Source: Pectobacterium sp. PL152 (GTDB lineage: Bacteria > Pseudomonadota > Gammaproteobacteria > Enterobacterales > Enterobacteriaceae). Taken from it: a DNA stretch of 64,000 bases. Location of the stretch: NCBI GenBank assembly GCA_021907015.1, contig CP091064.1:4898001-4962000 (forward strand), given 5' to 3'. Below the pieces are notes generated by a model that worked only from the letters and a program-made list of their open reading frames with translations, searched no databases and was not told where the DNA came from. This document shows, one piece after another, positions 242 to 55,704 of the stretch; the first letter of the stretch is position 1; every line of letters begins with the position of its first letter. Made by a program: the position numbers and the translations under genes.

Positions 242-864
242 GTGCTGACTTACATCTATCTGATCGCGATTACGGCAGAGGGGATGTCCGGGGCGCTGGC
301 CGCCGGACGTCGCAATATGGACATTTTGGCGTAGGCATGATTGCCTTTATCACCGCGCTTGGTGGTGGCACCGTTCGCGATATTCTCCTCGGTAATTATC
401 CCATCGGCTGGACACAACACCCCGGCTATATCTACCTCACCATTGGTGCGGGTCTTTTCACGATTATCATTGCGCGCTTTATGCACCATTTGCATCGCCT
501 CTTTCTGGTACTGGATGCGATGGGACTCATTGCCTTTACCATTATTGGCTGCAATGTGGCGCTGAAGCTGAATTATTCGATGACGGTGGTGGTCATGGCG
601 GGTATCGTGACCGGCATTTTCGGTGGAATATTGCGTGATATTTTCTGCAACCGTACACCAATGGTGCTGAAGAAAGAGCTGTACGCCAGCGTCTCACTTT
701 TAGTCGCACTTTTATATCTGGGGCTCAAGTCGCTTAACATCAACCACGATATTAACCTGTTGGTGTCATTCACTATTGGTTTGGCGGTGCGTCTGGCAGC
801 AATTCGCTGGTCATGGCGCCCGGTGTTCTCTTATGTTCCGGGGCGCTGGAAAGGCAAAGCGTAA
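242..864 (+). pseudogene. YicG/TRIC-family membrane protein (putative glycine transporter), frameshifted
   Basis: About 207 residues with several hydrophobic segments, resembling E. coli YicG and the UPF0126/PF03458 family. Family landmarks are ITAEGMSGALAAGRR near the N terminus, GGGTVRDILLG in the middle and GIFGGILRDIFC in the second half; the repeated GGG/RD motif reflects the internal duplication typical of the family. I chose GTG 242, preceded by AGGAT at about 230. The frame breaks at a TTTT run (324-327), where one more T would give MDIFGVGM and join both halves. The tandem glycine riboswitch directly upstream supports a glycine-related transport role. Function is inferred from family and riboswitch, not proven here. 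Confidence 0.8.
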
Positions 865-911
865 GGCTATATTTTCCCCATCGCTTATATTGCGCTGATT
901 ATCTGTGTGAA

Positions 912-1394
912 TGGTGGTGGGGTAAATAACGCTGCGCGTTGCTCAAAACCGTGCCTGTTTTGTCGAACCTTGGTCGAAGGTTCTCACCTTCCCCTGACGG
1001 AAATCTGATGCTTTGGCGTTGGGAGAAAGTTCAGAAATACTGCTGTGAAATGGTGGTGGGGAAGGATAATTCGGTGCTTCGCATCTCACCCTTCGGGTCA
1101 ACGCTGCGCGTTGCTCAAAACCGTGCCGGTTTTGTCGAACCTTGGTCGAAGGTTCTCACCTTCCCCTGACGGGAATCTGATGCTTTGGAGTTGGGAGAAA
1201 GTTCAGAAATACTGCTGTGAAATGGTGGTGGGGAAGGATAATTCGGTGCTTCGCACCTCACCCTTCGGGTCAACGCTGCGCGTTGCTCAAAACCGTGCCG
1301 GTTTTGTCGAACCTTGGTCGAAGGTTCTCACCTTCCCCTAACGGGAATCTGATGCTTTGGAGTTGAGAGATAGTTCAGAAATACTTCTTTGAAA
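912..1394 (-). repeat. rtT-like tandem repeats downstream of tRNA-Tyr
   Basis: Three head-to-tail copies follow the tRNA on its coding strand: 1223-1394 and 1051-1222 (172 bp each, nearly identical) and 912-1050, which lacks about 33 bp. Each copy begins with a duplicate of the last 17 or so bases of the tRNA (ATCCTTCCCCACCACCA) and contains short hairpins such as GAACCTTCGACCAAGGTTC and AAAACCGGCACGGTTTT. This matches the arrangement of the E. coli tyrT operon, whose repeats release the rtT RNA during processing and have been linked to the stringent response. Short reading frames crossing the repeats do not look protein-coding. Confidence 0.85.
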
Positions 1395-52466: not shown

Positions 52467-54553
52467 TTATTCCTCTTGATGTGACGATGCCTGCGCGGCT
52501 TTACGGGCTTTAACGCGAGCGATGGCGGCGGCAACAGCAGCCTTGCGGGGATCTTCCGGCTCTTGTGTTTCAACGGCTGCAACAGGTTCTGCAACTACGT
52601 CAGGGGCAACCGAGGAAACGGGAGCTTCTGCGTTTGTTACGGTCTGCTGTGCAGCCTTACGGGCTTTAACGCGAGCGATGGCGGCAGCAACAGCAGCCTT
52701 GCGGGGATCTTCCGGCTCTTGTGTTTCAACGGCCGCAACAGGTTCTGCAGCGACGTCAGGAGCAACCGAGGAAACGGGAACCTCTGCGTTTGCTACGGTC
52801 TGCTGTGCAGCCTTACGGGCTTTAACGCGAGCAAGGGCGGCGGCGACTGCCGCTTTGCGCGGATCATCAAGCTCGGCAGAAGCAACGTCGACCGTTGGCG
52901 TTTCCTGTTGCACCTGATTTTCACTCGCTCGCTCTTCACGAACTAATGCCTTCCGCGCAGCCCGTGCGGCGATGGCGGCGCTGTTATCCGGCTGTGCATC
53001 GGGGATTACCTCGATTGGTACACCGATCTCAGTTGCTGCGGTTTGCTTGCGGCGTACGCGTTCCAGCGCTGCCTGAACGGCATCTTTATCGCTGGCGGAT
53101 ACACCAGCCGCTGCTTGTTTATGGCGCAGTTCGCGCGCGGCTTTTCCCGTTCCAGACGCGCCTGTTTAGCGTCAAAGCGCACTTTAGCCTGCGCGGCACG
53201 CTGTGCGTCTTCGTCGATTGCCCGAATTTCGGCTTTTTCCTGACGATAGTACTGTACCAGCGGAATATTGCTGGGGCAGACGTAAGCGCAGGCCCCGCAT
53301 TCGATGCAGTCAAACAGATGGTGATTGCGGGCTTTCTCGTGTTCCTGCCCGCGGCTGAACCAGTAAAGCTGCTGTGGTAAGAGTCCCGCCGGACAGGCGT
53401 CAGCACATTTACTACAGCGAATACAGGATTGCTCTTCGGCGACTGGCTCCATTTCCGCATGCGACGGCGCCAGCAGACAGTTACTGATTTTGACGATCGG
53501 TACATCCAGCGACGGCAGGGTAAAGCCCATCAGCGGACCGCCCATCACCACCATCGGCTGCTTGTTGACATGGAAGCCACCTTGTTTGAGCAGGTGGCGT
53601 ACTGGCGTTCCCAGCCGCGCCCACACGTTACCGGGTTGACGTAAAGCTTCACCAGTGAGCGTCACCACGCGTTCGGTGAGCGGCTCGCCGTCGATCACGG
53701 CACGTTTGATGGCGAAGGCCGTACCGACGTTCTGCATTAACACGCCAATCGCGGCGGAGTGTTTCCCGAACGGGACTTCTTTGCCGGTCAGAATCTTGGT
53801 GAGCTGCTTGGCACCGCCTGACGGATACTTGGTGGGGATGACGCGCAGCTGCATATCGCCGCGTTTACCCAAGGCTAGCCGCAGGGCGCTGATGGCTTCC
53901 GGCTTATTATCTTCGATCCCAATCAGAATACGTTTCGGTTGCAACAGGAATGACAGAATCTCGACGCCCTGAATAATCTCCTCGGCGCACTCCTGCATGA
54001 GTCGATCGTCGGCGGTGATATAGGGTTCACACTCTGCGCCGTTGATGATCAGAGTTTCAATCCCGCGCATCCCGCCTTGTAACTTGGCGGCGGTAGGGAA
54101 CCCTGCGCCGCCTAAGCCCGCAATGCCAGCCTGATGCAGGTGGGCAAGCAGGGTGTCGGTGCTCTGTGTTTGATAATCAGCCAAAGTCTGGCGATCGCAC
54201 CAGCGATCTTCGCCATCCGGCACGATGATGATGCTGAGTTCTGACAGGCCAGAAGGATGCGCCGTTGTGTGCTGGCGGATCGCGTTCACCGTTCCTGACG
54301 TCGGTGCGTGAACGGGCAAGGTGCGGCCTCTTCCTCGCGTCAGCGGCTGGCCGCGCAGGACTTTATCGCCGACGCTGACGCAGATCTCACCTTCCGGCCC
54401 AAGATGCTGCTTGAGTGGAATGATGAACTGTTCTGGCAGAGGAATCTGACGCAGTGGCGTCCGGCTGGACTGCGTCTTCATTTCCGGCGGATGAATGCCG
54501 CCGTCGAAATCCCAGATCCTGTCTTTTTTAAAGGCGGAAAACAGCTTAAGCAT
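52467..54553 (-). pseudogene. rsxC: Electron transport complex subunit RsxC, frameshifted
   Basis: Membrane-associated NADH/ferredoxin-domain subunit of the Rsx complex. N-terminal region GGIHPPEMKTQSS, a flavin/NADH domain (GLGGAGFPTAAK, INGAECEPYI) and two [4Fe-4S] sets, CIRCSKCADACPAGL and CIECGACAYVCPSNI. A Lys/Ala-rich C-terminal tail with three 52-residue repeats follows. Repaired length about 695. The break is at TTTT 53142-53145 (AAAA on the coding strand); one more A restores REKAARELRHKQAAAG and the frame then runs to 52467. Overlaps rsxB by 8 bp. Confidence 0.93.
52490..52880 (-). repeat. 156-bp tandem repeats in the rsxC tail
   Basis: Three in-frame copies, with TTACGGGCTTTAACGCGAGC at 52501, 52657 and 52813 (exactly 156 bp apart), encoding DPRKAAVAAAIARVKARKAA plus a V/E-rich spacer. 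Copies 1 and 2 are nearly identical; copy 3 has diverged slightly. Repeats of this DPRKAAV type occur in enterobacterial RsxC and vary in number. Confidence 0.9.
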
Positions 54554-55124
54554 GTCGTTCTACTTGAATAACGCGTACTGGAATTGTATCGAGATCCCAT
54601 TTCCAGTTAGCGGGAGTCGGCGTGATAGGACGTAATTCGATACAGTCCGTCGGGCAAGGAGAGACGCAGAGATCGCAGCCAGTGCATAAATCGCTGACGA
54701 CGGTGTGTACCGCTTTGGTACTGCCGATGATGGCATCAACCGGGCAGGCCTGAATGCACTTGGTGCAGCCGATGCAGTTGCTTTCATCGATCCAGGCAAC
54801 CTGACGCGCAGGCGCTTGCACGTCGGCATCGCCTTCCAGCGGCTGCGGATCGACGTTGAGCTTTTCAGCCAGCTTCAGCATCATCGCTTCGCCGCCGGGG
54901 CCACATTTATTAATATTTTCCCCATTCAGCGCGACCGCTTCGGCGTAAGGCCGACAGCCGGGGTAACCGCACTGGCCGCACTGGCTTTGTGGCAGCATGG
55001 CTTCCACTTCTTCCACAATCGGATCGTTTTCGACTTCAAACCGGCGGGAGGCGTAGCCGAGCACCAGACCGAATGCCAGCGCGAGGGCGCTTAATGCCGC
55101 AATGGCAATCCAGATCGCGCTCAT
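54546..55124 (-). CDS. rsxB: Electron transport complex subunit RsxB
   Basis: Iron-sulfur subunit, 192 residues. N-terminal anchor (IWIAIAALSALALAFGLVLG), a Cys cluster CGQCGYPGCRPYAEA and two ferredoxin-type clusters, CIGCTKCIQACPVDAI and CTGCDLCVSPCPTDCI. The start overlaps the rsxA stop (TGATG style). Intact. Confidence 0.96.
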   Translation of the reverse strand: MSAIWIAIAALSALALAFGLVLGYASRRFEVENDPIVEEVEAMLPQSQCGQCGYPGCRPYAEAVALNGENINKCGPGGEAMMLKLAEKLNVDPQPLEGDADVQAPARQVAWIDESNCIGCTKCIQACPVDAIIGSTKAVHTVVSDLCTGCDLCVSPCPTDCIELRPITPTPANWKWDLDTIPVRVIQVERHA

Positions 55125-55704
55125 CAGAATTTCACCAGTCCGGTAAAGCCCATAAACGCCAGCGACATAAGGCCGGCGGTGATCAGCGCGATAGAAGAAC
55201 CCCGGAACGGCGCAGGAATATCCGACACGGCGAGGCGTTCCCGAATGGCGGCGAAGAGCACCATCACCAGCGAGAAGCCTGCGGCACCGCCGAAGCCATA
55301 AATCGTCGATTGCAAAAACCGTGCGACAGATTGATGTTAAGCAGGACGACGCCTAGCACGGCACAGTTGGTGGTAATCAGCGGCAGGAAAATCCCCAGCA
55401 GGCGGTACAGCTCAGGGCTGACTTTGCGCACGAACATCTCGGAAAACTGTACCACCACGGCGAGCACCAGAATAAAGGCCATGGTGCGTAGATAGAGAAT
55501 ATCGAGCGGAACGAGGATAAATTCGTTGACCAGCCAGGAAAACATGGAGCCGACAGTCATGACGAACGTGGTCGCCATGCCCATGCCAATTGCCGTCTCG
55601 AGCTTTTTGGACACGCCCATAAAGGGGCACAGCCCAAGAAACTTCACTAAGACGAAATTATTTACCAGAAGGATGCTAACAAAGAGCAATGCGTATTCGG
55701 TCAT
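55124..55704 (-). pseudogene. rsxA: Electron transport complex subunit RsxA, frameshifted
   Basis: First gene of rsxABCDGE-nth. Six-span subunit of 193 residues when repaired: MTEYALLFVSILLVNNFVLV, FLGLCPFMGVSKKLETAIG and ITTNCAVLGVVLLNINLSHG, with the C-terminal GFSLVMVLFAAIRERLAVSD in the next frame. The break is at AAAAA 55314-55318 (TTTTT on the coding strand; six expected). ATG 55702-55704 agrees with E. coli MTDYLLLF; the open frame begins 22 codons earlier without support. Confidence 0.94.

What the first reader, a model, noticed from the sequence alone, without database searches (positions are those of the whole stretch)
324..55318. About 38 one-base frame breaks, nearly all at homopolymers
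At least 24 conserved genes, including the whole trpABCD set and most of opp, rsx and dtpA, are interrupted by single-base shifts, and the family sequence resumes at once in the neighbouring frame. Most sit in runs that are one base too short (A5 to A4, T6 to T5, G5 to G4), for example 324-327, 2408-2411, 4681-4685, 12774-12778, 13866-13869, 15850-15853, 18377-18381, 33025-33028, 37273-37277, 42540-42545, 47901-47905 and 55314-55318. Only one clear insertion was seen (12236-12239). This density in core metabolic genes, alongside intact long genes such as adhE, topA, trpE and araA, points to homopolymer undercalling in the assembly, not decay. Gene calling on this sequence will be misleading.
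Basis: partly seen in the sequence, partly recalled or inferred. Interest (0 to 1): 0.72.

Follow-up and report, generated by a model that had tools for sequence, protein, structure and literature searches.

The report
Homopolymer under-calling broke the genes
The many broken genes in this Pectobacterium genome are almost certainly misread stretches of repeated letters left by the sequencing, not real mutations, so gene counts and pseudogene claims made from this assembly cannot be trusted.

Summary
Inside ORFs the window has 46 private frame-breaking indels; each congener has 3-11 over a similar length. Of 66 private one-base deletions, 48 touch a run of four or more. Loss rises with run length in the window (5: 6/86, 6: 3/14, 7: 6/9), in coding and intergenic DNA alike. 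It is not local: 18 compared stretches across the chromosome hold 172 such breaks in 294,638 bp, against 13-18 in 265-268 kb for three congeners. Essential genes are hit: secA has three shifts within about 310 bp and no second copy; murF, mrdA and mrdB are broken. Selection on the broken genes looks normal, with no nonsense substitutions. A mismatch-repair mutator was considered because mutS itself reads as broken, and rejected: it predicts far more substitutions than indels and the opposite is seen. Verdict: uncorrected homopolymer under-calling in a long-read, probably nanopore-only, consensus. Platform and reads were not available. An ordinary artefact of low interest.

The parts
140..861 (+). 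Gene with a 247-aa congener copy, read in two frames here
1396..1479 (-). tRNA-Tyr gene, one base shorter than the other tRNA-Tyr copy at 2.77 Mb of the same genome; the same repeated motif is short at three places about 172 bp apart
2570..3026 (-). PRK01617-type (YchJ-like) gene, broken
3126..4059 (+). rssA, broken
4198..5177 (+). rssB, broken
11888..15383 (+). Two tandem oppA genes, both broken (spans merged)
17288..19308 (+). oppD and oppF, both broken
27181..27581 (-). Gene with a 134-aa congener copy and no NCBIfam match, broken
28706..29451 (-). Gene with a 245-aa congener copy and no NCBIfam match, broken
29822..34270 (-). trpA, trpB, trpCF and trpD, all four broken
36760..37664 (+). 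RNase RNM gene, broken
40173..40954 (-). yciK, broken
42411..42711 (-). PRK11037-type gene, broken
47286..48772 (-). dtpA, broken
52470..54553 (-). rsxC, broken
55127..55866 (-). rsxA, broken

Best explanation
The breaks are consensus errors. The sequencer measured homopolymer length poorly, the consensus settled on one base too few, more often the longer the run, and the sequence was not fully polished with accurate reads. Shown: deletion bias, dependence on run length, spread over the chromosome, absence from congeners, hits in essential genes, normal selection on the broken genes. Inferred: that the reads were nanopore reads of an older chemistry, and that polishing was absent or uneven.
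For: 13 of 13 places confirmed. 46 private in-ORF frame breaks against 3-11 in congeners. Runs conserved in all five congeners are shorter here in 2/290 (length 4), 6/86 (5), 3/14 (6), 6/9 (7) and 1/1 (8), never longer; G011 0 of 453 for length 4 or more, other congeners 0 to 3. Runs of 5 or more: coding 10 of 85, intergenic 6 of 25. Chromosome-wide: 172 in 294,638 bp in 18 of 20 fetched stretches, controls 13, 18 and 18 in 265-268 kb. 296 of 350 private breaks are -1 and 20 are +1. Essential secA, murF, mrdA and mrdB broken. The private nonsynonymous-to-synonymous rate in broken genes is 0.040 (congeners 0.024-0.056), with no nonsense substitution. The same signature is described for the long-read assembly Pss508 (PMC12007338, passages).
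Against: 18 of 66 deletions are outside runs of four or more, without Dcm or Dam enrichment (1 of 18 each). In the sampled stretches the rise with run length is not smooth: 19/379 at 5, 21/97 at 6, 4/19 at 7, 0/5 at 8, and 3 runs were longer. Density is very uneven, 0 to 15 per 10 kb. dnaE, alaS and ftsW are intact, as are all seven 16S genes by length. Per kb, broken essential genes are somewhat rarer than broken non-essential ones, though shifts per kb are similar (8 in 47.5 kb against 5 in 25.7 kb; small numbers). No reads, platform or same-species isolate were available.
Confidence: 0.97

Rival explanations
1. A real mismatch-repair mutator: mutS was lost and homopolymers then shrank throughout the genome of a living strain.
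For: mutS reads in two pieces in this genome and whole in G013. Indels of such strains lie mostly in simple repeats (97.73% in P. fluorescens ATCC948, PMC4316635, passages).
Against: In that strain indels are 6.77% of mutations and lean to insertions, so 66 deletions would come with about 900 substitutions. The window has 42 private nonsynonymous substitutions in 55 ORFs beside 381 synonymous ones, a ratio of 0.11, within the congeners' 0.075-0.138 though above the nearest one. Only 20 of 350 breaks are +1. secA, mrdA, mrdB and murF are broken. mutL is intact.
Confidence: 0.015
2. Real genome decay, as in a strain moving to a host-restricted life.
For: Many interrupted genes, 20-29 of 55 in the window depending on the method.
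Against: No nonsense substitution and no relaxed selection in broken genes. One-base deletions dominate. Full-size 5.02-Mb chromosome. Essential genes hit.
Confidence: 0.005
3. Programmed frameshifting or transcript slippage at the runs, so that the genes still work.
For: Many breaks lie in A or T runs, where slippage can occur (general knowledge).
Against: Congeners read the same genes in one frame (0/67, 1/63, 1/63 and 0/58 exceptions). Intergenic runs are shortened too. Most affected runs are 4-6 bases, short for slippage (recalled).
Confidence: 0.005

Closest known systems
Gene-fragmenting deletions in the long-read assembly Pss508 (Kastor study, PMC12007338; passages read)
   Same: Most indel errors are false deletions, most often after four to five equal bases; about 23% of genes annotated as pseudogenes, mostly frameshifted; completeness measures understate the damage
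   Different: Another organism; about 31% of the errors there are substitutions, which were not counted as errors here; reads were at hand there
Systematic errors of nanopore R9.4 assemblies (Homopolish, PMC8011154; passages read)
   Same: [quoted passage not shown] 151-5298 pseudogenes reported after Racon-Medaka
   Different: The sign of the error differs among its datasets (insertions in unpolished drafts, deletions in some polished isolates); no reads to compare with here

Membership tests
Homopolymer under-calling in a long-read consensus | One-base deletions dominate | tested here: met
   296 of 350 private frame breaks are -1
Homopolymer under-calling in a long-read consensus | Deletions sit in runs and increase with run length | tested here: met
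   Window 6/86, 3/14, 6/9 at lengths 5, 6, 7; sampled stretches 19/379, 21/97, 4/19, 0/5 at 5-8, so the rise is clear only to 6 there; 18 of 66 are outside runs of 4 or more
Homopolymer under-calling in a long-read consensus | Blind to coding and to essentiality | tested here: met
   Runs of 5 or more: coding 10/85, intergenic 6/25; essential 4 of 39 genes against 5 of 33
Homopolymer under-calling in a long-read consensus | Found over the whole assembly and not in relatives | tested here: met
Homopolymer under-calling in a long-read consensus | Run length disagrees among raw reads | not testable with these tools
   No reads held
Mismatch-repair mutator | A mismatch-repair gene is disrupted | tested here: inconclusive
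   mutS reads broken, mutL whole, but the mutS break may itself be an error
Mismatch-repair mutator | Substitutions outnumber indels | tested here: not met
   42 private nonsynonymous substitutions in 55 ORFs against 66 private one-base deletions in the window
Genome decay | Nonsense substitutions and relaxed selection | tested here: not met
   0 nonsense; 0.040 in broken genes against 0.024-0.056 in congeners
Programmed frameshifting | Break conserved in relatives | tested here: not met
   Congener comparisons show 0/67, 1/63, 1/63 and 0/58 genes in more than one frame

The most novel reading that the evidence does not exclude
A living Pectobacterium lineage with a deletion-only homopolymer mutator and some means of reading through thousands of broken frames, including secA and mrdA.
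Probability: 0.01. Interest if true: 0.85.

Novelty: not a real feature. Interest (0 to 1): 0.1.

Why it matters
The assembly is rated 100% complete with 0.51% contamination, yet between a third and a half of the window's genes are interrupted (20-29 of 55). At 242 in-ORF breaks in 451,986 bp the chromosome would hold roughly 2,700 (extrapolated). Gene presence, pseudogene counts and claims of missing pathways drawn from it, such as tryptophan synthesis, would be wrong, and completeness scores do not show the problem.

Tried and rejected
Origin-to-terminus gradient from read depth: dnaA lies at 2.44 Mb, so the window is at the opposite side. Within 0.6 Mb of it there are 23 breaks in 68,535 bp, elsewhere (window included) 195 in 289,681. 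Spearman 0.34, p = 0.16 with 19 points; 0.38, p = 0.067 with 24 points, -1 breaks only. Not established. L146 overlaps L030 by 5 kb, so a few breaks count twice.

Methylation-context errors: no Dcm or Dam enrichment at the 18 non-homopolymer deletions (1 of 18 each).

rRNA as a yardstick: the seven 16S copies are all 1,542 nt, although the one copy examined has four runs of 5 and one of 6. This is against a uniform error rate; but repeated copies pool reads and four of the seven lie within about 0.6 Mb of dnaA, so it does not decide.

Single essential genes: alaS and dnaE were tried first and are intact, which went against the artefact reading and led to the cluster test of 87 E. coli genes. 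72 could be scored; 15 were dropped because the own copy or the congener copies were missing or poorly matched. nadD is among the dropped.

20 own stretches were fetched and 18 compared: L036 had no marker match, L041 matched only one congener. In some of the 18, such as L031, the G011 piece does not align and the calls rest on two congeners. The homopolymer-normalised rank test gave no value, because one stretch had no scorable run.

The gene count (29 of 55) is too high, because over-long ORF starts catch intergenic breaks; one search gives 20 or 22 of 55.

The name of this assembly is not given by the tools, and I did not identify a paper on it in the listings seen (I looked at the listings only).

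Full report
1. What was checked. The window is bases 4,898,001-4,962,000 of a single-contig chromosome of 5,019,495 bp. The window aligns along nearly its whole length with five congeners: G011, and G021, G013, G020 and G004, with most long pieces at about 90-95% identity and G011 the nearest for much of it.

2. The breaks are there. One rule applied to every genome gives 46 private frame-breaking indels inside ORFs in the window and 4, 11, 3, 4 and 4 in the congeners. With tblastn, 20 of 55 (G013 proteins) or 22 of 55 (G011 proteins) genes are read in more than one frame, against 0/67, 1/63, 1/63 and 0/58 between congeners. By nucleotide position 29 of 55 ORFs carry a break. Named from their intact G013 copies these include purU, rssA, rssB, both oppA copies, oppB, oppC, oppD, oppF, tonB, ompW, trpA, trpB, trpCF, trpD, the RNase RNM gene, yciK, dtpA, rsxE, rsxC and rsxA. 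purU, oppB, oppC, tonB, ompW and rsxE are not among the 20-22, probably because a break near an end leaves no second scored piece or lies outside the true gene (inference). adhE, topA, trpE and araA are intact.

3. What kind of change. Of 66 private one-base deletions in the window, 48 touch a run of four or more in the window or the congener; 37 touch such a run in the window itself, where 7.2% of random positions do. Among runs identical in all five congeners, the window is shorter in 2 of 290 of length 4, 6 of 86 of length 5, 3 of 14 of length 6, 6 of 9 of length 7 and 1 of 1 of length 8, and never longer. G011, treated the same way against the other congeners, is shorter in 0 of 453 runs of length 4 or more, and the other four in 0 to 3. 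Intergenic runs are affected at least as much as coding runs: for length 5 or more, 6 of 25 and 10 of 85.

4. It is not local. Twenty 20-kb stretches spread over the chromosome were fetched, and 18 could be compared with two or three congeners. They hold 172 private in-ORF breaks in 294,638 bp; the congeners hold 13 in 267,556, 18 in 265,820 and 18 in 265,251. In these stretches the share of shortened runs is 16/1199, 19/379, 21/97, 4/19 and 0/5 for lengths 4-8, and 3 runs were longer, so the rise is clear to length 6 and the longer classes are too few to judge. With five more stretches and the window, 296 of 350 private breaks are -1, 25 are -2 and 20 are +1. Density is uneven, 0 to 15 per 10 kb. 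The window lies opposite dnaA, but the trend with distance is not significant.

5. It does not look like biology. (a) Essential genes are hit: 4 of 39 against 5 of 33 non-essential ones, with 0 of 117 and 0 of 97 congener comparisons broken (the essential list is recalled from the E. coli Keio collection). secA has 930-931 aa in one piece in the five congeners searched. Here its outer parts share one open frame of 929 aa, but three shifts within about 310 bp leave some 104 residues in wrong frames, and no second copy is found beyond a weak 66-residue match that all six genomes have. mrdA has three shifts; murF and mrdB are split. Against this, dnaE, alaS and ftsW are intact. (b) The broken genes show purifying selection like that of three congeners (0.040 against 0.024-0.056) and no nonsense substitution. 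(c) One of the two tRNA-Tyr genes found is a base short; the other, at 2.77 Mb, is complete.

6. The mutator rival. mutS is itself frame-broken, which made a mismatch-repair mutator worth testing. In mismatch-repair-deficient P. fluorescens ATCC948 indels are 6.77% of mutations and lean to insertions (PMC4316635, passages read). Here 66 private deletions stand beside 42 private nonsynonymous substitutions, a nonsynonymous-to-synonymous ratio of 0.11 that lies within the 0.075-0.138 of three congeners, though above the nearest. Only 20 of 350 breaks are +1. The rival fails, and the mutS break is best read as one more error (inference).

7. Mechanism. The pattern is that of a long-read consensus in which run length is underestimated. 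PMC12007338 describes mostly false deletions after four to five equal bases (passages), and PMC8011154 reports 151-5298 pseudogenes in Racon-Medaka R9.4 genomes (passages). That the platform was nanopore is inference; the one-contig assembly fits a long-read method. The uneven density may reflect local read depth or partial polishing, which cannot be tested here.

8. Verdict. The finding is an ordinary technical artefact. Its use is as a warning, since the assembly is rated 100% complete.

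Noticed in passing
G000:C1:3729689-3732210 (outside the window): mutS reads in two pieces in this genome and whole in G013; probably one more consensus error.
   Followed up: partly
window 1057-1479: The end of the tRNA-Tyr gene is repeated at about 172-bp spacing, and the same run is one base short in all three copies, as a sequence-dependent error would give.
   Followed up: partly
window 11888-15383: Two tandem oppA genes ahead of oppBCDF, present in G013 too.
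   Followed up: no
L144-L145 (G000:C1:3975001-4015000): nadD matches E. coli NadD at 41% identity in one frame here, but at 60-61% in three congeners; compensating shifts or a divergent allele, not resolved.
   Followed up: no
L024-L043 and window: Break density differs strongly between stretches (0 to 15 per 10 kb) without a significant link to distance from dnaA.
   Followed up: partly
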